From Amyelois transitella (taxonomy: Eukaryota > Arthropoda > Insecta > Lepidoptera > Pyralidae): a DNA stretch of 64,000 nucleotides. Positions within the stretch are counted from its first letter, which is position 1. Each line of letters starts with the position of its first letter. Location: assembly GCF_032362555.1 (NCBI RefSeq), contig NC_083525.1:8417501-8481500 (forward strand). The letters run 5' to 3'. The notes under the pieces are model-generated. The model was not told the origin of the DNA and made no database searches. It saw only the letters and a list, made by a program, of their open reading frames with translations. The position numbers were made by a program, and so were the translations under genes. Positions 1,664 through 52,247 of the stretch are shown one piece after another.

Positions 1664-4600
1664 CCGCGGCACTACCGCACCGCCATCTATGTGCTGCTTC
1701 TCATCAATCTGGTGTCGATCTTCACAGCCGCCAAGACGGTCCTGGTGCTCAACCCTGAAGACAGGTGTGTATTACGTAATTTCATAATTATTTATATGCC
1801 ACGAATTACTTATGTGCCGTGTGGTGCCGGGAGCACCAATAAAAAAGAAATAATAGGACCGCTCCATCTCGTAAAAGGCGTAGACGTGACTATATGTATG
1901 TATGCCATCGTTTAGCCAATCAGTCTTTTCAAGACGGTTGGCTCTGTCTACCCCGCAAGGGATATAGACGTGACTATATGTATGTATGTATATAGCGATA
2001 GTTTTTCAAGTTTATAAGCCTATCCCTTAGTCGCCTTTTACGACAACCATGGGAAAGAGAAGGAGTGGTCCTATTCTTTTGTTTATTGGTGCCGGGAACC
2101 ACACGGCATCGCTATATCGCTTTTTATTATGACGTGAAACGAGACAGCGATAAAGTTTCTCGCGCGTTAATAAATCTGTCAATAATAAAATAAATATATA
2201 CATTAGGGGGATCCCCATTTAATAAACTTGTTCACATACATACATAAAATCACGCCTCTTACCCGGAGGGGTAGGCAGAGACTACATCTTTCCACTTGCC
2301 ACGATCTCTGCATACTTCCTTCGCTTCATCCACATTCATAACTTTCTTCATGCAAGCTCGACGGCAATAAACTTGTTTGTTTCGTATTTTTTGCCCAGTA
2401 TATTAATAACGGTAATAGGTAGACGCTTATAATTTTCACAGAATATTTTGTTGTATCACCCTCTTGACTTTAGTCCCGGTTGCATCCTCACCACTCTGGA
2501 GAAGAGCCCGGGGTACGCTTTTGACCGTGGACCCTGGATTGGGTGAGTCAGGTTTTTACACGAAGCGACTCACATCTGACCTCCGCAACCTATGCAGGTT
2601 TACCCATCCAAATTCCTGAATGTGCAGGTTTCCTCACGATGTTTTCCCTCACCGTTAAAAAAATCGTTTAGTATTCTAACTTATGTAGGTAAGTATTATA
2701 TAATTTTCGAAAATAGTCATTGGTACATGGCCGAGGCGAGATTCGAACCTGCGCTCTTTACATACATACATATAATCACGTCTGTATCCCTTGCGGGGAA
2801 GACGGAGCCAACAGTCTTAAAAAGATAGATAGGCCGCGTTCAGCTATTTGGCTTTATGATGGAATTGAGAATCAAATAGTGACAGGTTGCTAGCCCATCG
2901 CCTAAGAGAAGCATCCCAAGTATATAAGCCTATCCCTTAGTCGTCTTTTACGACATCCATGGGAACGAGATGGAGTGGTCCTATTCTTTTTTTTTATTGG
3001 TGCCGGGAACCACACGGCACGGCGCTCTTTACTTTTAATATATTTACGGAACCCTTCGTGCGCAAGATCGACTCGCACTTGGCCGGTTTATTTTTAAACT
3101 AGCTGTGCTAACAGCAACTTCGTCCGCGTAGAATAGTTATTCTGGGCATCATTGAAGCCCTCAAGGATGAATAATTTTCCCTGTTACTTTCACATTTTCC
3201 ATTATTTCTTTGCTCCTTATAGTTGCAGCGTGATGTTATACAGCCTAAAGCCTTCCTCGATAAATGGTCTATTCAACGCAAAAAGAATTTTTCAATTCGA
3301 ACCAGTAGTTCCTGAGATTAGCGCGTTCACAATCAAACAAACTCTTCAGCTTTATAATATTAGTACCTATAGATAAATTTACTCTTCATTACTGTAATAC
3401 CTTTACTTAATTGCACAATATTGTACCTAATTGCGTTTCTAGTTTTTCAGTGCGTGTCGATTATCACACCGATTACACGCAATATGTTGTCGTTATTGGA
3501 TAATACTAGTTTTTTTAATCGACTTCAAAAAAGTCTATGGATTCCTCTTTTAGGCGATGGGCTAGCAACCTGTCGCTATTGGAATCTCAATTCTGTCATT
3601 AAGCCAAACAGCTGAACGTGGCCAATCAGTCTTTCAAAAAAGTAGGTGAATGTACTAGTAGATCACTGCGGAACAATTACAAGTTGTCGATCCCAGCACA
3701 TCGGCTGGCTAAGGTAGGGAAATCATTTCTGATTAATTGTATAAGATTTTATAATAAATTACCAAAAAGTGTTCTTGAAATGAATGATAGAAAATTCAAA
3801 CAGTATATTAAAGTTGAGCTTTGTAGGAAAGCCTATTACAGCACGGATGATTATATTAATGATAAACATGTGTGGCCCGAGCTGGACATAATGGCCTCTT
3901 AAATGCTTGTGTATTTTTGACATGATCTTGACATAATTTGTACAGTATGTACATATTTTATTTTATATTTATTTTATTTGACGAAATATTCGTATTGACA
4001 TAATCAGTTCTACATTCATACATGTTTTTTAATGTAGACAATGTGCATTCGTCCACGATTTAGATTTAAGAGATCTATATTTGTAAATTGACGTCCTGTG
4101 AAAATGCTGCAGTGTAGTTTGTTCCGCCGCTTCTTCTACACATGCGCTTTGGAAGCGGTAGTAATTATAATTAGATTTAAGTTATGTGACGTCAATAAGT
4201 GATACCTTGTATCCAATTTTGAAAATAAATCTATTCTATTCTATTCTATTCTAGTGTTTTCAAGACTGTTGGCTCTGTCTACCCTGCACGGGATATAGAC
4301 GTGACTATATGTATGTATGCCATCGTTAAGCCAAACAGCTGAACGTGGCCAATCAGTATTTTCCAGACTCTTGGCTCTGTCTACCCCGCAAGGGATATAG
4401 ATCAGAATATATGTATGTCTGTTCAAGAATGGTCACTTGAATATTATAATGCGTACTAGGTCTATTCAACGCAAAAAGAATTTTTCAATTCGAACCAGTA
4501 GTTCTTGAGATTAGCGCTTTCAAACGAACAAACTCTTCAGCTTTATAATATTAGTAAAGATATAACTTTGAACCTACTTGTTATTCAGAAGTAGGTACAT

Positions 4601-7600: not shown

Positions 7601-10600
7601 CGAGTGGATTATGATTGATCGCGCTTGTTGTCAGAGGCGGCCGCATCGACCTGAGAGTGTAGGGACTGAGACGAGTGCATGGCAACTGTACACATACATA
7701 CATACATATTGGTCACGTCTATATCCCTTGCGGGGTAGACAGAGCAACCAGTCTTGAAAAGACTGACAGGCCACGGTCAACTGTTTGGCTTAATGATAGA
7801 AAAAAATATGATTTCAATGCGAATATTATGTCGAATAGTACTTATAATGATATATATACAATTATATATACGTACTGTATAAATATGAAGAATATTATAT
7901 GAAGAAGAAAATGCTGCAGTGCAGTTTGTTACCGCTTCTGCACTGACGCTTTGGAAGCGGCAGTAAACATAGTTTTAAGTAACTTATTTGTCGTTAACCA
8001 ACGTTGTGAATACAAAAGATATGACATTTATTAAGTGATATTGAAATGTCCCATAATAACGAATAAACGTTTTGAATTTGAATATACGTTCCATTACAGA
8101 ATCTCGGTGACCCGAGGCGCTTGGCTGACGGCGCTCGGATTCGTTTTTCAAAAGACATGACAATTATTAAACGTTTTTGAAATGTCCCATAATAACGTTT
8201 TGAATTTGAATTTATTTTCCATTACAGAATCTCGGTGACCCGAGGCGCTTGGCTGACGGCGCTCGGATTCGTTTTCTTCATGTCAATGTTCGAGCTCCTG
8301 AACGTGTGCGCTCTGTACACCGGGGTAGGCAGCCGGCTGAGGCAGAGATACCGGCTCGGCTGCGGCGACGTGCTGGACATCACCAACAAGTGAGTGCCGC
8401 GCGCGGAATGTAAGTTGAACAAGATGGCGGCGCGTCTTCTTCATGACAGCGTTGGCGCTGGTGTACACCAGGGTAGGCAGCCGGCTGAGGCAGAGATACC
8501 GGCTCGGCTGCGGCGACGTGCTGGACATCACCAACAAGTGAGTGCCGCGCGCGGAATGTAAGTTGAACAAAGATGGCGGCGCGTCTTCTTCATGACAGCG
8601 TTGGCGCTGGTGTACACCAGGGTAGGCAGCCGGCTGAGGCAGAGATAGAGGTTTCAGTTATTAAATTATTTCAAACAAGGATGGAGTTTACACAATTTAT
8701 AGTATTTATGGGGTGTTCAATAGTGATCAGTGGACTTAATGCATTGGAAAAGTTAAAAATATTCCCAAAAAATAGAAACCCGTGCCGTGTGGTTCCCGGC
8801 AACAACCAAAAAACAAAAAGAATAGAACCACTCCGTCTCATTCCCATGGATGTCGACTAAGGGATAGGCTTCTAAACTTGGGATTCTTCTTTTAGGCGAT
8901 GGGCTAGCAACCTGTCACTATTTGAAGCTCAATTCTATCATAAAACCAAGCAGCTGAACGTTGCCTATCAGTCTTTTGAAGACTGTTGGCTTTGTCTACC
9001 CCGCAATGGATATAGACGGGCTGATATGTATTTATGTAAATTGAAACCCAGGTCCTTTGATCGATGATAAAAAACCACTATCTGAACCTAATAAATCTAT
9101 TCTATTCTATTAACCTTCAAAAACAGTTGTCTTTACAAAATAAATACATATAAAAAAATAGTCATTATTCTGTATTGCTTTTTAATAACAGTGGAATTAA
9201 TGATTGTTGATAAAGTTTAACATTGCCTCGGGAAGAAAAAAAAAATAATATTGTCTATCGTCACTTGTATAGGATGTATTTCCGGTCAATAAAGTTGTTG
9301 TCACGTATCCGTTAGTCTAACTATAATAACTCCGTAACATATAGCGTTGTCGGAATTGATATGGTGGTCTATATTCCGACCGTATCTCGTAAACAAAATG
9401 ACAAGGCCGAATTAATTTAGATGTTATTCCATATTGATTGGCCTATTTTGGTGATTATAATCATTTTTTTTAATAATGTATCTACATATATCTGTTAGGT
9501 ATGTATAATTGATGAAATGTTTCAGATATATTATATGTATTATAATCGTATGTGTTATCATGGTTTTGATTGAATTAAATATATAATTCTTTATGGCACA
9601 CTAGACCATTACATGCGTAAGTGATATTAAATTAAGTTGACTTAAATCTAATTACATGACGTTTGATGTTGTAATTTGGAATGTATGAGATATCTTCATG
9701 AGAAATGTAGGGGAGCTCTAGATGTCTCTAAATACTCACAGGAACGAAGTGAACAAGATTTTTTTATACTCAACTGAAAAGAATCATTCGTTCATTCATA
9801 TAATCACGTCTATAACAATTAACAGTTAATCAAAAATTAACTGTATGTTATGACAAGTACGTTGAAAATATGATGAAAAAAAATATATATAATCCTCAAC
9901 ATCAGGTTAGTGTCGGCGGTGCAGGCGGCGTTCTGCTGCGCCACCGGCGTGGTGGTGTGCCTCTGGTCCTGCACCCGGGACTTCATGCGCACCTCCCACT
10001 ACATGTCCGAGGCGTACGCGTGGTTCGGTGCCGCCTACTTCTTCTACGACATCTGGTCTATGTACATGGTGAGTGATGAACAATAAATAAAATATATATA
10101 TATATATATATATGTATGTATATATATATGTCCTGCACCCGGGACTTCATGCGCACCTCCCACTACATGTCTGAGGCGTACGCATGGTTCGGTCACTTTT
10201 CCGCCAGCCGGGGTGATATGACGTATTTAGGATCGTGGACGTTTGATACTTTTATTTTTTTTCGTACTTTCTGAATTATGAATTGATATTTTTCTTTTAA
10301 CGTTTTTAAATATCCTTTAGATGAGTACACTTAACAGTTAAATTTATGCAGTTGAATTAAAAGTCACCCTGTATAGATCTCAATTCTATCATTAAGCCAA
10401 ACAGCTGAACGTGGCCTATCATTCTTATCAAGACTATTTCGTATAATCCAAATTAAAAGACGTCTTTTCACCAGGTACACGTTCAAATGAACACCAACGT
10501 GGACTACTTCAAGAGCAAACTCCAAAGGAAGTTATCCAAAAATGGCGACGCGTCCTTGTCTTCGGGCGACGGCGCCCCGCCCGCCAAGAGGCAGCCCACC

Positions 10601-13600
10601 TTCCTGGAGTACTGCCGATACGAGCCGGTCATACTGCTGCACCACATCTTCATTGGCGGCTTCGGGTTCCTCGTCATTGTGGTGAGTAGACATTGACAAA
10701 CTCCAAAGGAAGTTGTCCAAAAATGGCGACGCGTCCTTGTCTTCGGGCGACGGCGCCCCGCCCCCCAAGAGGCAGCCCACCTTCCTGGAGTACTGCCGAT
10801 ACGAGCCGGTCATACAGCTGCACCACATCTTCATTGGCGGCTTCGGGTTCCTCGTCATTGTGGTGAGTAACATAGACTAACGTTATCCCTCATTTATAAT
10901 ATGAGGGTTATGAGTCTTCTTAGTTTTGATGTTAGCGGGAGCGATGTTACGGGTTCAATGGAAATGGAAGATGTTTTTTTTATGTAGACAATGTGATTTA
11001 GATTTAAGAGATCTATTATCGTAAATTGACGTCCGATGAAAATGTTGCAGTGTAGTTTGTTCCGTCGTTTCTTCTACACATGCGCTTTGGATGCGGTAGT
11101 AGTTATAGTCAGATTTAATTGATGTGACGTCAATAAGTGATACCTTGTATCCAATTTTGATTCAATTCTATCATGAAGCCAAACGGCTAAACGTGGCCTA
11201 TCAGTCTTTTCACGACTGTTGGCTCTGTCTACCCCGCTAGGGATATAGACGTGATTATATGTATGAATGTAGAAGCGAAGGAAGTATGCAGAGATCGTGG
11301 CAAGTAGAAAGAGGTAGTCTCTGCCTACCCCTCCGGGAAAGAGGCGTGATTTTATGTATGTAAGTATATTTACGGCCTCTGTGCGCAGCGGTGGTGCGCT
11401 TGTCTGTGTTACCGGAGGTCCCGGGTTCGAATCCCGGCCGGGGCATGATGAGAAACGAACTTTCTCTGATTGGCCTGGGTCTTGGATGTTTATCTATATA
11501 AGTATTTATTATAAAATATAGTATCGTTGAGTTAGTATCTGTTAACACAGGTCTCGAACTTACTTCGAGGCTAACTCAATCAGTGTACCTAATTTGTAAA
11601 AAAAAAAATTGAAAAAAATTGTTACAATATTGTGTCCAGTACCTACGCGGCGACCTCGGCGACTGCACGTTCGGCTTCGTGTACCTAATGGAGCTGTCCA
11701 CCCCGTTCGTGTCGGCGCGCGGCATCCTCTCCCGGCTGCGGCTGAAGGCTTCCCGCGCTTATCTCCTCAACGGGCTGCTGATGCTGATAACCTTCCTGCT
11801 GTGTCGCGTGGTCAGCCTGCCCTCAGTGTGCTACATGTATAGCAGAGTGCTGGGACTCTCCTACTGGGAGGTGGGTCTTCGTATACTGGATACTCTGCCG
11901 TGGTATAACTAAAATGCCGTTATCTGACATCAGGATTTACACCGACGGCCTCTGTGGCGCAGCGGTAGTGCGCTTGTCTGTGGTCGGAGGCCCCGGGTTC
12001 GAATCCCGGCCAGGGCATGATGAGAAACGAACTTTCTCTGATTGGCCAGGGTCTTGGATGTTTATCTATATGTATATGTTTTTATTATAAAATATAGTAT
12101 CGTTGTGTTAGTATCTCGTAACACAAGTCTCGAACTTACTTCGAGGCTAACTTAATCAGTGTAATTTGTCCCGTATATATTTATATATATTATTTATTAA
12201 CTAAAATGCCGTTATCTGACATCAGGATTTACACCCTTTTTTACCGGTTAAATAAGAAAAAAAAATCTCTTTTTGATCTGTATATTATACGACTTTTTGG
12301 TACCTTTAAGTCATAAATAGGCGTTCTCATTGATGAATGGCATCAGTTTAAATTTTTACCGCAGTTTTTGACGTTTCACTAAAAACAAGGATTTGGCAGA
12401 TAACGGCGTTTTAGTTATACCAGGGCAGCCCTGGGAACAAGTTCAAATAGTCGGGAGTTCGGTCACTGGCCATATGCTCGACCACCACCGGGAACAAGTT
12501 CAAGGTCTTGAGAGTACACATTGACGGCCTCTGTGGCGCAGCGGTCTGTCTGTGACACCGGAAGTTCCGGGTTCGATGAGAACGGGCATAATGAGAAACG
12601 AACTATATCTGATTGATTCAAATATTGACAGATTGCTAGCTTTGTGGCCTTAAAGAAGAATCCCAAGTTTTTAAGTCCTATCCCTTAGTCGCCTTTTACG
12701 ACATCGATGGGAAAAAGATGAAGTGGTCCTATTATTTTTTATATTGGTGCCGGGAACCACACGGCATATACATACATATCTATATTCATGTAAAATTCCA
12801 CATCCATATCCATTAAGGTTTTTCGCTGTTTTTGACTGATAATAGCGTAGCGTGATTTTATTTTTATTTTTGTGTTTGTTTATTTGTAATATCTTTATTG
12901 CATAGAAATTTACACAGTACCTAACAAGGAAATAGTAAGTACATATGTAGATATAAAAGAATCAAATCACTTGCAATGGGCTTATAGATATCGCCACAAT
13001 TTGAAATATACGTAATTTTAATTCGCAGGCCATCCAGACTCTCCCGATTGGCTGCAAGATCTCCATCTGCATTCTCCTGTTGCCGCAGCTCTACTGGTTC
13101 TATCTGATGTCTGCGGGCGCCATGAAGGTATAACATGCATACATACATCATACATACACAAAGTCACGTCTATATCCCTTGCGGGGTAGACAGAGCCAAC
13201 TTACAACTTTATTGTGGTATAAATTTAACCTTTCGTTGACACTAGTATCGTGAGGTGTGGTTCCCGGCACCATTAGAAAAAAAGAATAGGACCACTCCAT
13301 CTCTTCGATGGTCGTAAAAGGCGACTAAGGAAAAAACTTGGGATACTCCTTGTAAGCGATGGGCTAGCAATCTGTCATTATTTGAATTAAATAAAAATAA
13401 AATAAAATGTTTTTATTTCAGATTTGCATCCATTAAATCAAATTGTAAACATAGTTAGCCTCATAGTTTCTTTTGTTTTCATGTCTCTTGTGGTGCTAAA
13501 GGGTTATTGTAATTTAGGGATATTGACGGCTTCTGTGGCGCAGCGGTAGTACGCTTGTCTGTGGCATCGGAGGTCCCGGGTTCGAATCCCGGCCAGGGCA

Positions 13601-36497: not shown

Positions 36498-37713
36498 TGT
36501 GGTGATATGCAACCTCCACATTACCTTTTATCATAAAACGAACATTACAGTTCTGTCACATGTTCAAAGTCATACTGTATAATTTTATTGAATAAAGCCA
36601 TATTTACTGAGAAATGGTTAGTTATTCTACAATTTATTCAATAAAATTATACAGTATGACTTTGAACATGTGACAGAACTGTAATGTTCGTTTTATGATA
36701 AAAGGTGTCAAAGCTAATGTGGAGGTTGCATATCACCACATCGTTATATACTTACTGTGGTGGATGAGTTTTCTAGATTTCCTTTCGCTTTCCCGTGTGC
36801 AGATGTAAGTTCATCAACTGTGCAAAAGAAACTTTCTGAATTATTTGCCATTTTTGGCTTGCCATCTTACGTTCACTCGGATAGAGGTACCGCATTTATA
36901 TCAGCCGAACTTAAAACCTTTCTGCACGGATTAGGCATAGCTACAAGCTACACTACACCATATAATCCCCAAGGCAATGGTCAGACCGAGAGATATAATG
37001 GAATCATTTGGAAAACTATACAACTTACCTTAAAATCAATTAATTTGCCTATTACTCAATGGGAAACTGTCCTTGAGAAGTCACTTCATGCTATCCGCTC
37101 ACTTCTATGCACAGCTACTGGATGTACGCCCCATGAGCGTATGTTTAATCATTCACGACGTTCTTCTAATGGACAATCAATGCCATCTTGGCTCACAGAA
37201 GCAGATAAAGCTTTATATCGAACCCCGGTGAGGAGAAGTAAATATGATCCTCTTGTAGAAGAAGTACAATTATTAGAAGCTAACAACCTTCATTCACACA
37301 TAAGATTACAGAATGGACGAGAATTAGTAGTTTCAAACAGGCACTTAGCCCCAATGGGTACTTCGTCTGATACTGAGGAGGCTGATTCTGATTCATCTAA
37401 TTGGGATTCAGCAGAGTCAAACGAAGAGACAACAACTGAAGAACAGGAACCAGTTAATTTGACTACAGATGCTACTACAACACAAAACCCTGAACTGCGA
37501 CGTTCTACTAGAGACCGACGTCCACCGTCTCATCTTCAAGATTACGATCTTTCTTAAAACCTGGGGAGAATGTGGTGATATGCAACCTCCACATTAGCTT
37601 TGACACCTTTTATCATAAAACGAACATTACAGTTCTGTCACATGTTCAAAGTCATACTGTATAATTTTATTGAATAAAGCCATATTTACTGAGAAATGGT
37701 TAGTTATTCTACA
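36498..37713 (+). mobile_element. Short Ty3/Gypsy-type LTR retrotransposon, broken, flanked by a 5-bp target duplication
   Basis: The left LTR (36498-36631) and right LTR (37571-37713) are near-identical, both starting TG and ending CA. The 5-bp target duplication AGTAG is at 36493-36497 and 37714-37718. A purine-rich stretch lies just before the right LTR. The interior holds an inverted partial LTR copy (36632-36741) followed by an integrase-core segment at 36757-37557 (HSDRGTAFIS, YNPQGNGQTERYNG, then a C-terminal SNRHLAPMG motif typical of insect Gypsy pol). Most of gag-pol is absent, so the element is broken. The close LTR match suggests a young insertion. Family placement is from motifs only. 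Confidence 0.88.
36632..36741 (-). repeat. Inverted partial LTR copy inside the LTR element
   Basis: This stretch is the reverse complement of the LTR from its first base to the AATAAAG region, placed directly after the left LTR, so the two form a long near-perfect palindrome. It sits immediately before the integrase segment. Confidence 0.85.
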
Positions 37714-38017
37714 AGTAGTGATCAGATATGCATGTGCTAACAATAAGATTCACGACGAGTCTTACAATCAATAAAAATATTGCGCTTTAGAACAAATTAT
37801 TGCGGTTTCATCAGAGACAGCTAGCAGCACTGTTAAATTTTGTTTTGTCAATGTCAATTGTCAAAGATGGCAATAGATGTCAAAACGGGTAATTCCATTG
37901 TCCATGTCCTTTGTTTTGTTGCGTTTGTGATTGTGAGATGTACTATACAATTAAGGTGTTTTTTCGTATTAATATTCTTATTCCCAAAGTAACGAATTAG
38001 TTCCATAAAATATAACC

Positions 38018-42766: not shown

Positions 42767-45700
42767 ATGTTCATAGAAGATTTGAAGACTGATTTTTACG
42801 ACGTATTATTAGGAAATGTAAGTAATAAGTTTGAAATTATGTTGTTTACCATCTCAAAACATTCATTTTCTGACTGAAATCCATCGAATTATTAATATTT
42901 TCTTACAGAGAGTGCTGTTATTAGTTCATTACGACGTCGACGCAATATGTGCGTGTAAAATATTGCAAGAATTGTTCAAATGTGATAATATTTCGTACAC
43001 ATTAGTGCCAGTGGGGGGTATTGCAGAGTTGAAAACGGCATACGAAGAAAATAATGAAGAAATCAAATATGTGGTGATGGTTAATTGTGGTGGAACTATA
43101 GATCTAGTGGATATCTTACAGCCAGAAGAGGATGTAGTTTTTTTCGTTTTAGATTCACATAAACCAACAGACATTTGTAATGTGTATAGTGATGGACAGG
43201 TAAGACATTCAAAAAGTTATCGTATCTATATATAAATTAAAAACAACAATAGTGTTACAGGATAACACATTCTTTTAAAGCTTTGAAAGGTATTAAGGAG
43301 ATGGGAATGGTATTCAGGTAGAAACATACCTACATCAGAATATTTCTTTATTTACATATCTATGATATGCCAAAAACACAGATTGAGCTGTCTCCAAACA
43401 CAGGTATTTGCTTCATTACACCATGATCTTCCTGGCATAAGTCTCCATTTGGTCCTCCAAAATATCTGAAGTGGAGCCCAGGGATTGCCTGATATTTAAG
43501 CAAACAAATGTTACAATGCTTGACAAAAGTGGTTTCTGTTACCCTTAATGATTACAGAAAGTCAAAAAATTAACATAGGTCTCACAAGCTGAGCTTTAAA
43601 TACATTGGATTTATTAAAGCCAAATATTATGGTACATATTGTTATGGTAAGAAAAAAAAATTGCAATAGAAATCTAGTTTTTGACACGAATTAGTAAACA
43701 TATTCTTGTGTTTCAGGTGAGATTAGTGTACAAGGATAGTGAAGAGAACATTCCCAACTTTGATGATATATTCAGAGATGATGAAGAGGAGGTAAGACAT
43801 TAATAGGGTAATGGACCATACAGCTAAACATGGCCTTTCAGTCTTTTCAAGACTGTCAGCTTAGTCTACCCTGCAAGAGATATAGACGTGATTATATGTA
43901 TGTATGTAATTATCCATACACTGAAAGGGTGCCATGGAAATCTATCTGAATTGTAATTATATTTTTTTAATGTTATGTGAAATAAGAATCCCTCATTTTC
44001 TTGAGGGGATTTTTATGAACTTGCAAAGCATTTCAATGTTTTTCAATTTTTAAGAGACACTCTCTTTAGGGTTTAGCTAAAGCCACGAGAACCAGCAAGT
44101 AGCCGCCTGAGAATAGCGAGCTACTTAACTTGGTGAGAACCAGAGTAGACGAAAGGAGAGGGTCCAGGGCGCGTCCGCCTTATGAAGGGTTCCCGGGTTG
44201 TAAAGATGGTGTAGACAAGACCATGGTGGCAAGTTGAAATTCTTCAACACTTAATATTTCAGGAAGACCAGCCAACAGATAGTGGCATGGAAGCCCTAGA
44301 GGCGGTGGTGGAGAAGCGTCGTGCACGCCGAGCATGGGAGGAGCGCCGTCATACGTTGATGTTTAATTATACGCAGTTCTCGTACTTTGGGAGACCGGTG
44401 AGCGATACTAAGGATTATATAGCAAATTTAATTGAGCATTCTTTTTACAAATTTATATCTTATCCAACTGATTATATTGGTATTGTTGTGTACATCATTT
44501 ACGAGTATAGCAAACCCCGCAGGAACAGTACTTTTTCCGGTCTAAAATTACCCAATGTTTTGCCCAGGATGCAAAAGTGTAATGGTACTAAGTTTCAGCA
44601 TAATGTTATAGTTATTGCATGATTCCTAAATATATGGGCAGTTATACATTTTTACAATCTTATTTTATTGCGTATCACATAATACATGCTAATTTTTTTT
44701 TTTTGTTCAATGCACATTATTTATCATTGTACAGATTTATTATACGTGTACTGTGATAAGATGTGCCATCATTGAGTTATTGATTATCCAGTAACACAAG
44801 TTTCGAACTTACGTAGTTCATTGCGTATTGTAATGACTAATAACTTTTCCCTTTCTTACTATTTTTGTATATTACTCAGTTTTATCAATTAAAAAATCAC
44901 CCTGTGTATTTGTTTATTGATGATCAATGTTGTTCCAGAGCGCGTGCGTAGCCCTGGAAGTGTCCCAGCTAGTGTCGCGCTGCAGCGTGACGTGCGCGTG
45001 GAGCGCGAGCGTGGCGTGCACGGCGATGGAGGCGCTGTGTGCGCGTGCGCCTGCGTTGGCCGTGCTCGATGCCAGCCAGCTGCAGCGCGTGCTGGCGCAC
45101 CGGCAGCTGCAGGAGGACCAGCTGGTGAGTGTCTCAGCTAGCGTCACGTTATATCTATCGATCGAAATATGTATCTATAGTTGACCTCGAAAATCATCTA
45201 TCTACGGTATTCGAACCTGTTTTCCCAGACAATCGCCCTACCGCTGCACCACAGAGTTAGCCGTTAAAATCAATACAGGGTGATATTTTAAACAACTGCA
45301 TCCTTTTAAACATAGACTATACCCATGCTTCTGAGCCGTTTGAGCCTATTTTTATTTAAATTAAACGTCATCATTTTCACATAACCCTCAAAAATTACGT
45401 CACACGCTTTATTAAAGACCAATACTACAAAAAGAAATTAAAACTAAACATGTAAATAAATGTCTGAAAAATAAATTATTTTTCTAGTATCAAGATCAAC
45501 TAAAGTACAGAGTTGTCGAGATCGCTCAGCTGAATGAATTGTGTCGTTGACCTTTGAATCTGATGCGTCGCTTTTCCGCCGGCCGGGGTGATATGACGTA
45601 TTTAGGCTCGTGGATTTTGATATGTTTTTTTTTTTTTGTACTTTCTGAAATATGAACCGATATTTTTGTATTAACGTTTTTAAATATCCTTTAGATGAGT

Positions 45701-48700
45701 ACACTTAACATTTAAATTTATGCAGTTGAATTAAAAGTCACCCTGTATATCTGTTTCTTTCAGTCGTGTCACATAGTTATAGAGAAAGACGCGTGGCTCC
45801 CCCTGTACCGGTCGTGGTCGCTGGAGGCGGCGCTGCGGCACGCCCCCTTAATCGGTCCCGCGCTCAAGCTGCACACGCTGGCTGGGGAGGGGCGGTTACG
45901 GCAACTGCTGGCTGATATGGGGTATGTATTTTGCAACAGAACATTTAAATATTTCACTTTCGCCTGAGACATACATACATATAATCACGTATAGACGTGA
46001 TTATAATATGTTGTATTTTTAAGACTGCTGGCTCTGTCTACTATAGATATAGATCTATAGATCCATAGTAGACAGAGCCTTGAAAGATTGATAGGCCACG
46101 TTCAGCTGTTTGGCTTATTGATAGAATTAAGGTTTCGTCTGATATTCTCATTATTATTGTTATCGTCTTTTTTTTCTCGTGCCGTGTGCTCGGCACCAAT
46201 ATAAATAGAATAGGACGACTCCATCTCTTTCCCATGGACGTCGTAAAAGGCGACTAAAGGATGGGCTTATAAATTCCTTTTAGGCGATGGGCTAGCAACC
46301 GGTCACTATTTGAATCTGAATTCTATCATTAAACCTAACAGTTGGACGTGGTCTATCAGTCCTTTCTAGACTGTTGGATCTGTCTTCCCCGCAATGGATA
46401 TAGACGTGATTGTATGTATGTAAATAAGTCCACTCCGATGTTACTGTATTAATGGTCTATGGTAAATTTCTCATCCAAAATCAGGGCCTATTCATTCAGT
46501 TTACATCGATATATACCTAATTTACATGAAATGGTCCTTTGAGCCGTATCAACCATGGAGTATAGAATTTTACTAGTTTTATTTTCAAACTAGTTATGTT
46601 TCATATAATATAAATATAACTTATTGAAATCAAGCAGTATATGTACATAAGCGTCGGAAAAAACTTCATTCATTCATTTATATGATCACGTCTATATCCC
46701 TTGCGGGGTAGACAAAGCCAGCAGTCTTGAAAATATGATAGGCCACATTCAGCTGACAGGCTTAATGATCTACTAAGAATTAAAGAGAGTTCTACTCTAT
46801 TCATTTTATTTATTTATGTACACAAAATTATACAGTACACAGGTAGTAAGTATAAGTAAGTAGTAAGTATACAGCATTCAATTCAGTTATTCTAGTACTT
46901 GAAATAAGTAGCACCTTTGCTACTTATTTCAAAAGAAATCTCTTTCAGTAGAGAGGAGATATGAATTTTGGAGCGGTATGGCGTGTGCATAAACAACATT
47001 TAACTAAAGATACATGCTACTTTCATTTGAGAACATTTAATTCCAGCTACCCGCTGTCACAAGCCCGCCAAGCCTACCGCTCTATGGACGTGGAACTCCG
47101 CCGGGGATTATGCACCGCCCTCGCCACTGCGGCACCCAAACTAGGGCTCCCGGACCCCACCAGGGCCTCGTTCCTGCTGAGAAGGCCACACAAGCCTCCG
47201 CTACCCGCCCTTGACTTGGTCTACATCATCATGGCTCTCATAGAACATGTAAGTTTTTAGTTGCTGTAAGCAACCTTCATGTACGCCATAGCAACGGTTG
47301 TCATGACTAGTTTTATAGGTTAGGAAATTATGTAAGATATTGTAGGTATTTATTGTCAAATATTTTTATGTTATGTCCAACAATATTATACATACATACA
47401 TATGGTCAAGTCGATATCCCTTGCGGGGTAGACAGAGCCAACAGTCTTGAAAATACTGAATGGCCACGTTCAGCTGTTAGGCTTAATGATAGAATTGAGA
47501 TTCAAATAGTGACAGGTTGCTAGCATATCGCCTAAAAAAGAATCCCAAGTTTGTAAGCCTATCCCTTAATCGCCTTTTACGACATCCATGGAAAAGAGAG
47601 GGAGTGGTCCTATTCTTTTTTGTAGTGGTGCCGGGAACCACACGGCACTAGTTTTATTAGTTAGGAAATTATGTCAGATATTGTATTTATTGTCAAGTAT
47701 TTTTATAATATGTCCAACAGTATTATAGTATTTTTTTCTAATTGTTTCTCTCCTCTTTTCTCCTTTTGTCTTCTGTAGTGAATAAACTAACTTTGCGACT
47801 TCCTACAGTTACTGCGGCCCTCAAATCGGGGAGCCCATCGGAGTTTCATTTTTGTTGAGAAAGTCCCACAGACCATCTTATGTGGCAATGACTTTTTCTG
47901 AGTTTGAATGTTAACTAACAATTCAATGTTATATTTTTTTAAATTTGTTCAATTTTGAAAACAGGAATCCAGGTGTCGTGTTTTTTCCTATTGGGATGAA
48001 CTTGGGATTCCCCTTGTTGGATGGATTAGCGACCTGTAACTTTGTATATATGTATGTAGGAGACCTACACAACATGGTTTCAGTGCAGTGCCGTGTGGTT
48101 CCCGGTAGAAGAAAGATTAGAACCACTCCATCTTTTCCCCATGGATGTCGTAAAAGGCGAATAAGGGACAGGCATATAAACTTGGGATTCTCCTTTTAGG
48201 CGACGAGCTAGTAACCTATCACGTTATATGAATCTCAAATCCATCATTAAGCCAAACAGCTGAACGTGGCCTATCAGTCTTTTCACTGTTGGCTCTGTCT
48301 ACCCTGCAAGGGATATAGACATGATTATATGTATGTACCGCTCCAAAATTCATATCTCCTCTCTTGGGTCTACTGGAAGAGATTTCTTTTGAAATAAGTA
48401 GCACCTTTGTACTAGAATAACTGTATTGAATGCTCCTGTATATAATTTTGTGTACATAAATAAATAAAATGAATAAATAGAGTAAAGTATGTACGTACGA
48501 TTGCTACTAGGACACGATCCCCAAAGCGGAGGGCTTCCAACACGCGCTGTCGGCGCTGGAGCCGGCGGGGGGCGGCGCCGCCGTGTCGCTGGGCGCGGCG
48601 GCGGCGCAGCGCGCGCTGGCGGCCTGCCGCAAGCTGGTCGCCGCCACGCTCGGCGAGCGGAGGCTGATGCGGGCCGGGCCCTTCAGCTACTTCATAGTTC

Positions 48701-51700
48701 CTGAGGTAGGTTTTCTGCGAGAGAATATATATATATTTATATATATACATACATATACTAGCGGACCCGACAGACTTCGGTTTTCTGCGAGAGAATATTT
48801 ATGTATACAGGGTGACATTTAAAACAACTGCATCCTTTTAAACATAGACTATACCCATGCTTCTGAGCTGTTTGAACCTTTTTTTATTTAAATTAAACGT
48901 CATCATTTTCACATTTAAAAAACCTTCAAAAACTGCGTCACACGCTTTAATACAGACCAATACTACAAAAAGAAATTAAAACTAAACAAGTAAATAAATG
49001 TCTGAAAAATAAATTATTTTTCTAGTATCAAGATCAAGTAAAGTACAGAGTTGTCGAGATCGCTCAGCTGAATGAATTGTGTCGTTGACCTCTGAATCTT
49101 ACGCGTCGCTTTTCTGCCGGTCGGGGTGATATGACGTATTTAGGATCGTGGATTTTGATACTTTTATTTTTTTTCGTACTTTCTGAATATGAACCGATAA
49201 TTTTCTTTTAACGTTTTTAAATATCCTTTAGATGAGTAAACTTAACAGTAAAATTTATGCAGTTGAATTAAAAGTCACCCTGTAGAATATGATTATAAGA
49301 AAAATTTTGTTATTTTGTGAGAAATATGAATGTAAATAGAAATATGACGCTAGAAATCTTGTTTGTTTCTGTTAGTAACTTCTTTGTTTCTAACGCAATA
49401 TTATATTTGTTATTTGTTCTTTTTTTATTTGAAATGAAGACTGTCAAGATTTATTTATTTTGTTATACAACGTGTAACGCAGAGAGGGTGTATCATATGA
49501 AGTGGATGGATACTATACCTTAAATAGATTCTTCCTACTTCTACAACTGGTCCTTATCACCATGTTTATAAATGCATCATGTCAAAATAAATTCCTCTTG
49601 CCAAATACATTAAGTGGTGTACTACAACCGCTGTATTATTGGCGTCAATAAATTAAAAAAAAAAAACTGAAATGTCCTTTTTTTTTTCATTTTTCAAATT
49701 GAACATGTCAGTGTTTGGCCGCAGGGCTGCCCGGAGGCGGGCGCGGTGCGCGGCCCGCTGTGGCTGGCGCTGGCGGCGCGCGGCGCGGCGGGCGCGGCGC
49801 CCGTGCTGGCCAGCGCGCCGCGCGGCCCGCACCACGCGCTGCTGCTGGGGCTGCCGCCGCGCTCCCAGCACGAGCCGCGCAAGTCTGCTATATACTATAC
49901 ATACATACATACGGTCACGTCTATATCCCGTGCTGGCCAGCGCGCCGCGCGGCCCGCACCACGCGCTGCTGCTGGGGCTGCCGCCGCGCTCCCAGCACGA
50001 GCCGCGCAAGTCTGCTATATACTATACATACATACATACGGTCACGTCTATATCCCGTGCTGGCCAGCGCGCCGCGCGGCCCGCACCACGCGCTGCTGCT
50101 GGGGCTGCCGCCGCGCTCCCAGCACGAGCCGCGCAAGTCTGCTATATACTATACATACATACATACGGTCACGTCTATATCCCGTGCTGGCCAGCGCGCC
50201 GCGCGGCCCGCACCACGCGCTGCTGCTGGGGCTGCCGCCGCGCTCCCAGCACGAGCCGCGCAAGTCTGCTATATACTATACATACATACATACGGTCACG
50301 TCTATATCCCGTGCTGGCCAGCGCGCCGCGCGGCCCGCACCACGCGCTGCTGCTGGGGCTGCCGCCGCGCTCCCAGCACGAGCCGCGCAAGTCTGCTATA
50401 TACTATACATACATACATACGGTCACGTCTATATCCCGTGCTGGCCAGCGCGCCGCGCGGCCCGCACCACGCGCTGCTGCTGGGGCTGCCGCCGCGCTCC
50501 CAGCACGAGCCGCGCAAGTCTGCTATATACTATACATACATACAGGGTGACATTTAAAACAACTGCATCCTTTTAAACATAGACCATACTCATGCTTCTG
50601 AGCCGTTTGAGCCTATTTTTATTTAAATTAAACGTCATCATTTTCACATTTAAAACACCCTCAAAAACTACGTCACACGCTTTATTAAAGACCAATACTA
50701 CAAAAATAAATTAAAACTAAACATGTAAATAAATGTCTGAAAAATAAATTATTTTTCTAGTATCAAGATCAAGTAAAGTACAGAGTTGTCGAGATCGCTC
50801 AGCTGAATGAATTGTGTCGTTGACCTCTAAATCCTACGCGTCGCTTTTCCGTCGGCCGGGGTGATATTACGTATTTAGGATCGTGGATTTTAATACTTTA
50901 ATTTTTTTTCGTACTTTATGAAATATGAACCGATATTTTTCTTTTAACGTTTTTAAATATCCTTTAGATGAGTACACTTAACAGTTAAATTTATGGAGTT
51001 GAATTAAAAGTCACCCTGTGTACATAGCCATGGTCACGTCTATATCCCTTGCGGGGTAGAGACAACAATACATATGGCACACTCTGATATATACTATACA
51101 TACATACGGTCACGTCTATATCCCAAGCGGGGTGGACAGAGACAACAGGCTTGAAAACACTGAGTGGCCACGTTCAGCTGTTTGGCCTAATGACAGAATT
51201 GAGATTCAAATAGTGATAGGTTGCTCGCCTGTCGCCTAAAAAAGAATGCCAAGTTTGTAAGCCATTCCCTTAATAGCCTTTTACGACATCCATGGGAAAG
51301 AGTGGTCCAAATGTTTTTTGTATTGGTACCGGAAACCACACGGTACACTCTGCTGTACTATATTATACACTAGAGGCTGAACTTCGTCCGCATTGAAACC
51401 ATATCAATCCCGCGGGAACTCCGGGATAAAAAATAGCCTATATGTTATTCTGGGTCTTCAGCTATCTACATACCAAATTTCATCGTAATCGGTTTAGTAG
51501 TTTTTTGCGGTAACAGAGTAACAAACATCCATACTGACGTAAAAACTTTCGCATTTTTAATATTAGTAGGATACACACTTCACAATGTGGTGTACATTCA
51601 CTTCACTCTCAGACCAGAAGGTTGACTGGTAGATGCTGCTTCTAGCATTGAGTCCACCAATTGACCTATACATTTGTATTTTGTACCATTAAGTTGAAAT

Positions 51701-52143
51701 AAATAAATACATACATTTCTTTAATTACTAAAATATATGTGAACTTAGACGGCTTGCTGTTTAAAAAATCGTTCACGTGAGAATTTAACAAATATTTCGC
51801 GCGGACGAAGCTGCGGTTAAAAGATACTTTTGTAATTAAAACATTCACCAGTGAACCGAACAACAATAAAGATTTAACCAACTTATATTTGCGGTCAATA
51901 TGCACACATTTTATAAGAACTGACCTACATATTTAAATTTGTAATGTATTCATTTGAATGTTGTAACTACGATTTCAAAAAAAGAATATGTCCGTTTCCA
52001 GTCTATTCGGCGCGGCGTTTGAGCAGGCGGCGGCTAAATGCGGCGCGTCCATTTCCCTGGACTTTCTGGACTCGTCCGTCATCACGCTGCCGATCGCTCA
52101 GAGACCACAATTTCTGGACGCCCTCACAGCGCTACTGGCTTGA
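42767..52143 (+). CDS. CDC45: Cell division control protein 45 (replicative CMG helicase subunit)
   Basis: Ten exons: 42767-42817, 42909-43199, 43717-43791, 44263-44397, 44939-45124, 45764-45921, 47047-47248, 48511-48705, 49725-49882, 52002-52143. All phases join, giving 530 residues (human about 566). The N-terminus has the DHH-like fold signature LLLVHYDVDAICACKIL and VFFVLDSHKP; an acidic segment follows (NFDDIFRDDEEEEDQPTDSG), then FNYTQFSYFGRP; the C-terminus ends FLDALTALLA, as in the family. CDC45 binds MCM2-7 and GINS to form the replicative helicase. The donor of exon 9 (AA then GTCTGC) is weak and is present six times because the exon end is tandemly amplified (49801-50542). Exons 5-9 are very GC-rich, exons 1-4 AT-rich. 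Introns hold three copies of one TIR element and several CATA elements. Confidence 0.95.
43823..43910 (-). repeat. CATA element fragment in CDC45 intron 3
   Basis: TGGCCTTTCAGTCTTTTCAA through ATTATATGTATGTATGTAAT. Confidence 0.65.
45276..45745. mobile_element. CAGGGTGAC TIR element, copy 1
   Basis: Starts CAGGGTGATATTTTAAACAA, ends AAAAGTCACCCTG, with TA on both sides (Tc1/mariner-like target). It ends 18 bases before CDC45 exon 6. Confidence 0.82.
45970..46425. repeat. Rearranged CATA elements with palindromes in CDC45 intron 6
   Basis: The (CATA) start, a snap-back (46030-46079, 15-nt perfect arms), a plus part and a minus near-complete copy (about 46183-46425) are joined. Confidence 0.7.
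46663..46770 (+). repeat. CATA element fragment
   Basis: TATGATCACGTCTATATCCC through CAGGCTTAATGAT, in CDC45 intron 6. Confidence 0.65.
47390..47648 (+). repeat. CATA element, near full length
   Basis: In CDC45 intron 7; full layout from the CATA tract to CCGGGAACCACACGGCA. Confidence 0.85.
48085..48340 (-). repeat. CATA element, near full length
   Basis: GTGCCGTGTGGTTCCCGG through GATTATATGTATGTA, in CDC45 intron 7. Confidence 0.8.
48808..49282. mobile_element. CAGGGTGAC TIR element, copy 2
   Basis: CAGGGTGACATTTAAAACAA to AAAGTCACCCTG, in CDC45 intron 8, TA-flanked. Confidence 0.85.
49801..50542 (+). repeat. 127-bp tandem array made from the CDC45 exon 9 end, donor and CATA-element start
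   Basis: Units begin at 49801, 49928, 50055, 50182, 50309 and 50436 (the last is cut at about 50542), each a constant 127 bp with essentially no differences visible by eye. Each unit holds 82 nt of CDC45 coding sequence (beginning CCGTGCTGGCC), the donor, a short intron start, and the (CATA)3 plus GGTCACGTCTATATC start of a CATA element. Unit junctions share CCC between exon and repeat, suggesting microhomology. A CAGGGTGAC TIR element interrupts the last unit. Confidence 0.97.
50543..51018. mobile_element. CAGGGTGAC TIR element, copy 3
   Basis: Inserted at a TA in the CATA tract of the last 127-bp array unit in CDC45 intron 9. Same ends as copies 1 and 2. Confidence 0.85.
51019..51350 (+). 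repeat. CATA elements following the CDC45 127-bp array
   Basis: The interrupted start resumes at TACATAGCCATGGTCACG, then a second complete copy runs about 51095-51345. This is the probable source of the intronic part of the array unit. Confidence 0.75.
51370..51571 (-). mobile_element. Helitron-like family 2, diverged copy
   Basis: CTAGAGGCTGAACTTCGTCC through TTTAATATTAGTAGGA, in CDC45 intron 9. Confidence 0.72.
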
Positions 52144-52247
52144 TGTAAGCAGGTATAAAGAGTATTTAGGCTATTCTTTATTTTTTTTTAGTCAAAGTGA
52201 TGTTAATCACCATCAAACAGATTGAAAACATTTATATCTATATCTAT

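What the first reader, a model, noticed from the sequence alone, without database searches (positions are those of the whole stretch)
49801..50542. CDC45 exon end and its splice donor amplified six times as a homogeneous 127-bp array
Seen: six units, constant 127-bp spacing, each joining 82 nt of CDC45 coding sequence, the exon 9 donor and the start of a CATA element. The unit junction has CCC shared by both parents. Inference: a CATA element landed just after the donor, a microhomology-mediated tandem duplication joined exon to element, and later steps amplified it. Six equivalent donors now compete in an essential replication gene. Unit homogeneity suggests youth or an assembly artefact.
Basis: partly seen in the sequence, partly recalled or inferred. 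Interest (0 to 1): 0.85.

Follow-up and report, generated by a model that had tools for sequence, protein, structure and literature searches.

The report
Exon-end and splice-donor array in CDC45
In a moth, the end of a coding exon of the replication gene CDC45, its splice site and the tail of a neighbouring mobile element are repeated about six times in a row, and several other genes of the same genome show the same kind of array.

Summary
The array is real in this assembly: exact 127-bp period at 49800-50544, 5.87 copies, no mismatch. Each unit is the last 83 nt of CDC45 exon 9, its donor, and the tail of a CATA (SINE-like) element, joined through a shared CCC. Homology confirms exon 9 and the donor position. 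The sixth unit is cut by a 478-bp TIR element. Donors 1 and 4 keep the frame; 2, 3, 5 and 6 do not. The donor is the gene's weakest. By protein identity the window is Amyelois transitella; the NCBI model isoform X2 follows donor 6 and is frameshifted.

The locus is not unique. The same genome holds CATA-headed arrays of exon ends plus donors in glycogen synthase, VPS35, flotillin-1, a SUFU-domain gene, a chitin-binding gene and two unnamed exons, and two likely acceptor-side cases. Arrays and pairs adjoin GC-rich DNA in 10 of 17 held cases against 8 of 88 solitary copies.

Most likely this is a young minisatellite born by tandem duplication between an exon and a nearby CATA tail, tolerated because the first donor still ends the exon. 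RNA usage is untested.

The parts
42767..52143 (+). CDC45 gene, ten coding exons, 530-aa product with donor 1
49725..49882 (+). CDC45 exon 9 (158 nt, ends in phase 2)
   Evidence: junction motif in 37 of 82 models
49800..50544 (+). 127-bp tandem array, 5.87 copies, 100% identical
49883..49888 (+). donor 1 (CAA|GTCTGC); repeated at 50010, 50137, 50264, 50391, 50518
49884..49900 (+). TSD-like stretch TCTGCTATATACTATAC next to the CATA tail; similar stretches at 51083-51099 and 51349-51368
   Evidence: read; the last two aligned (weak score)
49901..49929 (-). tail piece of the CATA (SINE-like) element in unit 1, ending at the shared CCC; same in units 2-5
50542..51019 (.). TIR element (ACAGGGTGAC..GTCACCCTGT, 478 bp) inserted in the last unit; near-complete copies at 45275-45749 and 48807-49283, a partial one at 10192-10378
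51020..51080 (-). remainder of the first CATA copy beyond the TIR element, diverged from the units
51090..51346 (-). near-full-length CATA element in intron 9
52002..52143 (+). CDC45 exon 10 (last coding exon), read in frame only after donors 1 and 4

Best explanation
The array is a minisatellite that began as one tandem duplication. A CATA SINE-like element inserted with its tail toward the exon, 18 nt into intron 9. A duplication then joined a point inside the element (TATATCCC) to a point inside the GC-rich exon (CCCGTGC) through CCC, so that exon end, donor, intron start and element tail became one 127-bp unit. Unequal exchange expanded and homogenised it. It persists because it is shielded by splicing: donor 1 still ends exon 9, and units 2-6 leave with the intron. 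Shown here: anatomy, junction, frame consequences, the sister arrays and the GC association. Inferred: order of events, amplification by unequal exchange, and use of donor 1.
For: Exact period and junction. Exon and donor position by homology. In TLCD3A, same window, four local duplications overlap splice sites or exons (8013-8275, 8314-8647, 9966-10193, 10516-10881; 87-99% identical), and the 253-aa product of the exons as I joined them is contained whole in the NCBI protein, so the other copies fall in introns in that model. Sister arrays at seven other loci have the same order, exon end - donor - 13 to 38 nt - CATA tail - exon end again (distances for the first three donors found at each). 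Beyond the last unit, a full-length CATA copy with a short direct repeat at C30 (CACTACATA) and C12:1.10 (ATGTAA); at C29:3.43 and C12:10.52 only 5-bp matches. Tail-side flank GC at least 0.5 in 10 of 17 arrays/pairs (8 of 12 with three or more copies) against 8 of 88 solitary copies, Fisher 1.7e-5.
Against: No RNA reads were seen. The NCBI model isoform X2 runs through to donor 6 (745 of 746 residues match that path), though reads with no more than 83 nt upstream of the junction cannot tell the donors apart. The units' CATA part (ACGGTCACG) resembles the downstream copy at 51108 more than the remainder at 51032 (AGCCATGG), so the single-duplication history is not proved. If the 12 clusters whose flank I did not hold are all counted as not GC-rich, the contrast falls to 10 of 29 against 8 of 88, p 0.002. 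In 160 kb of sampled genome, recent tandem duplications (94% identity or more, 3 loci) lie in AT-rich DNA, so exon edges are not the only place.
Confidence: 0.62

Rival explanations
1. A second, 5'-truncated CATA copy was reverse-transcribed into the tail of the first, with a long target duplication of about 100 bp that covered the exon end and donor; the unit is then TSD plus truncated element, later amplified.
For: The units' CATA part differs from the remainder of the older copy. A CATA copy at 47385-47648 is flanked by an 85-bp, 87%-identical direct repeat. Truncated CATA copies joined to the tail of another copy occur elsewhere.
Against: Of the five copies with adjacent flanking repeats (15 compared), three have 11-12 bp. 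The new 3' junction would have to fall at the same place as the old one. One duplication explains the locus with fewer steps.
Confidence: 0.22
2. Assembly artefact: a real duplication whose copy number was inflated or mis-set.
For: Perfect identity of all units. No reads could be examined. The NCBI model is probably from the same assembly and is no independent witness.
Against: 33 contigs for 327 Mb and no N in the window. Sister arrays have diverged units. The last unit is interrupted by a TIR element and continues beyond it in diverged form.
Confidence: 0.1
3. Units 2-6 act as mini-exons: GT of one unit to GGCCAG of the next gives a 58-nt intron and a 69-nt symmetric exon, adding 23 residues per copy in frame, a case of intron gain by tandem duplication.
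For: Geometry and phase. Precedents for new introns from exon-edge repeats (PMC2812944, passages) and Drosophila duplications (PMC2891723, abstract).
Against: Very weak donor. No RNA. Apart from the Amyelois model, none of the 82 CDC45 models has a long internal repeat at this exon.
Confidence: 0.06

Closest known systems
Internal tandem repeats at exon-intron boundaries of human duplicated genes (PMC2812944; passages read)
   Same: Minisatellite-type repeats over exon-intron boundaries; repeat may be kept or spliced out; may create introns
   Different: Mean unit 30 bp in segmental-duplication paralogs; no mobile element named as part of the unit in the passages seen
SINE-derived satellites of squamates (PMC10702118; abstract read)
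   Same: Part of a SINE in tandem arrays, repeatedly and independently
   Different: There the repeat derives from the SINE and is likely subtelomeric; here the unit also holds host exon and splice site
Intron gain by tandem duplication of coding sequence in Drosophila (PMC2891723; abstract read)
   Same: Local duplication of coding sequence near a splice site
   Different: No new intron is shown here
RTE-linked microsatellite families of Lepidoptera (PMC2887409; abstract and one results section read)
   Same: Lepidopteran retroelement tails adjoin simple repeats
   Different: Simple-sequence units, not exon ends

Membership tests
Minisatellite (tandem array) | head-to-tail units of one period | tested here: met
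Minisatellite (tandem array) | length polymorphism between individuals | not testable with these tools
   only one assembly held
SINE (the CATA element) | short dispersed element with defined ends and a simple-repeat tail | tested here: met
   46 BLAST hits in the window (array units and fragments included), 14 of them, the query itself included, reaching the same CGGCAC end; (CATA)n tail
SINE (the CATA element) | flanking target site duplications | tested here: inconclusive
   15 copies compared; adjacent repeats at five (11, 11, 12, about 25, 85 bp), only the 85-bp one clearly above shuffles
SINE (the CATA element) | tRNA-, 7SL- or 5S-related head | tested here: inconclusive
   Rfam scan of 46000-52200 gave no tRNA, 7SL or 5S match, only four sub-threshold others; SfSE1 with (ATGT)n tail (PMC8010984, passages) is only a lead, sequences not compared
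Intron gain by tandem duplication | a new intron removed from RNA | not testable with these tools
   no RNA data
Mutually exclusive exon arrays | whole exons with both splice sites duplicated | tested here: not met
   only nt 76-158 of exon 9 and the donor are repeated

The most novel reading that the evidence does not exclude
A recurrent, mechanism-driven class: CATA elements whose tail sits 13-38 nt from a splice site trigger repeated tandem amplification of the exon edge together with that splice site, in many genes of one moth genome. This would be a standing supply of duplicate splice sites and potential mini-exons, with CDC45 as the most homogeneous member seen here.
Probability: 0.4. 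Interest if true: 0.8.

Novelty: new variant of a known kind. Interest (0 to 1): 0.6.

Why it matters
It shows a splice donor of an essential gene multiplied while an intact reading frame remains available through donor 1, and that this recurs next to one mobile element. That makes donor choice among identical competing sites, birth of introns from tandem duplications, and annotation errors in repeated exon ends testable in natural alleles of one insect.

Tried and rejected
A donor elsewhere in exon 9 was considered: GCGGTGCGC at 49746 scores better, but it drops conserved sequence and shifts the frame. One search used a mistyped acceptor for exon 10, one search did not find it either; the isoform lines are void and one search replaces them. 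A claim that all recent tandem duplications lie at exon edges was dropped after the random-sample control. A special hairpin in the CATA tail was dropped: z -1.1. 'No stop in any frame of the unit' is not special: 502 of 2000 shuffles do the same. Small control for 5'-end pairs in 224 kb: 1 pair among 51 5' ends against 2 among 54 tail heads, no power. The 17 clusters are those whose flank I held, out of 29 seen; C22 was taken because of its sequence, and the other places were not examined. In one search, CATA hits without the tail end or without 100 bp of flank were left out before the count of 88.

Paper searches whose listings showed no report of this class (listings only, not all hits listed): 18 of 18 listed; 6 of 6; 11 of 11; 12 of 22; 12 of 35; 12 of 79.

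Full report
Observation. Tandem Repeats Finder and a direct self-comparison give an exact 127-bp period at 49800-50544, 745 nt, 5.87 copies, zero mismatches. In each unit, nt 1-83 equal exon 9 nt 76-158, nt 84-101 are intron start (GTCTGCTATATACTATAC), and nt 102-127 plus the next CCC are the tail of a CATA element, a dispersed element with 46 BLAST hits in the window, array units and fragments included. The exon has GCGCCCGTGC and the element has TATATCCCTTGC at the joint, so CCC is shared. The sixth unit stops after 110 nt at a 478-bp element with 10-bp inverted ends; beyond it the CATA sequence resumes in diverged form.

The gene. Ten exons (42767-52143) give a 530-aa protein that matches solved CDC45 chains over its length (6raw_A 3.6e-103 in two stretches, 5dgo_A 4.8e-101 over residues 1-529). 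Exon 9 ends ...CGC AA|GTCTGC in phase 2 and joins ...|T CTA TTC, giving PRNLFGAAF; the motif .R[NK][LF]FG.AFE is found in 37 of 82 homologous models. The other 45 were not examined one by one; the Amyelois model lacks it because it is rerouted. By protein identity the window is Amyelois transitella: the NCBI model P0001 is identical for 483 residues, and the TLCD3A exons at 8.2-11.9 kb are identical over 253 of 253. The window lies in G000 contig 21, in an assembly of 33 contigs and 327 Mb, where only one full-length match to the array is listed.

Consequences for splicing. Donors 1 and 4 keep frame (530 and 657 aa); donors 2, 3, 5 and 6 give altered C-termini. All three forward frames are open through the array, but a quarter of shuffled units (502 of 2000) have no stop either. 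The donor is weak: U1 duplex -1.0 kcal/mol against -4.9 to -11.0 for the other eight donors. The NCBI isoform X2 (746 aa) follows donor 6 for 745 of 746 residues and so is predicted to lose the native C-terminus. I read this as a modelling consequence of identical donors, since a read with no more than 83 nt upstream of the junction cannot separate them; this is inference. A GGCCAG in each unit could pair with the previous donor to give a 58-nt intron and a 69-nt symmetric exon; nothing shows that it does.

Age. The TIR element in the last unit has 12 private substitutions in 471 three-way columns (the two other near-complete copies have 15 and 13), some of which may be older than its insertion. 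At that divergence about 16 differences would be expected over 618 compared array positions, and none are seen. If the element entered after the first duplication, the units were homogenised or expanded later. An alternative is that the CATA part of the units came from the downstream copy at 51090-51346, which it resembles more than the remainder at 51020; then the order is open.

Other duplications in the window. TLCD3A has four local duplications that overlap splice sites or exons: 8013-8275 (acceptor side, 87%), 8314-8647 (donor side, 99%), 9966-10193 (97%) and 10516-10881 (donor side, 97%). The 253-aa product of the exons as I joined them is contained whole in the NCBI protein, which leaves the other copies intronic. 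As a control, 160 kb from 16 contigs held three non-dispersed duplications of 94% identity or more, all with GC 0.35 or less, and others less alike. Local duplication is therefore a general process; its visibility at exon edges here may come from GC-rich exons plus splice shielding.

Sister arrays. Searching G000 for two CATA heads 35-65 or 65-95 bp apart gave 33 and 47 matches in 28 places; one more (C22:570514) came from the 395-425 spacing. The 95-125 spacing, which would hold the CDC45 units themselves, did not complete. Many of the 28 are one element inside the tail of another. Others repeat exon ends. Glycogen synthase (C29; PDB E 3.9e-50, Pfam 1.2e-38), VPS35 (C23; PDB 7.2e-7, no Pfam match), flotillin-1 (C31; PDB 6.9e-11, no flotillin match in Pfam), a SUFU_C exon (C30; Pfam 2.5e-6) and a CBM_14 exon (C28; Pfam 2.1e-6) were identified by homology. 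C22 and C1 show an open exon with a donor; C12:1.10 and C19:0.59 look like acceptor-side cases on the other strand; none of these four has a family match above cut-off. C19:9.37 (GC-rich, exon-like, not tested) and C12:10.52 (coding-like, no match) are weaker. In C28 only two donors fit the strict motif, the other copies being changed, and in C1 the three donors are irregularly spaced (384, 473). In the seven sister donor-side arrays the CATA tail starts 13-38 nt after the first three donors found; for CDC45, where the script's motif caught an earlier TATATAC, the distance read from the sequence is 18 nt. TRF matches within the exon-edge sister arrays are 91-98% (best-period rows; C12:10.52 left out, its rows range from 67 to 99) against 100% in CDC45. 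The tail-side 100 bp has GC of at least 0.5 in 10 of 17 clusters whose flank I held and in 8 of 88 solitary copies; with 12 unheld clusters counted against, 10 of 29, p 0.002.

Other species. Among 82 CDC45 models, four have long internal repeats: this one, Achroia grisella (five copies of a 32-residue peptide that ends at the position of the exon 5 end, with the linker VPPPLPP, whose first residue fits a read-through GT) and two Plutella xylostella models, whose repeated parts lie near the end of exon 7 (P0040, aligned to residues 335-363) and, by eye, of exon 6 (P0042). Only proteins were seen for these. Among the 120 listed TLCD3A models (of 211 matched) three have such repeats.

Reading. 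The simplest account is insertion of a CATA element beside the donor, a tandem duplication across exon and element, and later amplification, tolerated because the first donor still ends the exon. A reinsertion with a long target duplication is the main rival, and the 5'-end control that would separate them did not complete. I call the element SINE-like; its tail and ends fit, but no RNA-gene head was found and its flanking repeats are mostly near chance level.

Noticed in passing
window 8013-8275, 8314-8647, 9966-10193, 10516-10881: Four local duplications of exon edges in the TLCD3A gene; the second copy at 10130-10193 is also followed by part of the TIR element.
   Followed up: partly
window 47306-47390 and 47647-47727: A full-length CATA element is flanked by an 85-bp, 87%-identical direct repeat, far longer than the 11-12 bp repeats seen at three other copies.
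   Followed up: partly
protein P0001: The NCBI CDC45 model isoform X2 of Amyelois transitella reads through the array to donor 6 and ends in a shifted frame.
   Followed up: yes
proteins P0026, P0040, P0042: CDC45 models of Achroia grisella and Plutella xylostella also contain repeated exon ends, at or near the ends of exons 5, 7 and 6.
   Followed up: partly
proteins P0086, P0087, P0121: Three of the 120 listed TLCD3A models of other moths also have long internal repeats.
   Followed up: no
L009 (C27:4760500-4765000) 1725-3079: A 64-bp array of 21 copies made mostly of the CATA tail, with no exon recognised beside it.
   Followed up: no
window 36498-36632 and 37571-37714: Two 94%-identical direct repeats about 1.07 kb apart that may be the ends of a mobile element.
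   Followed up: no
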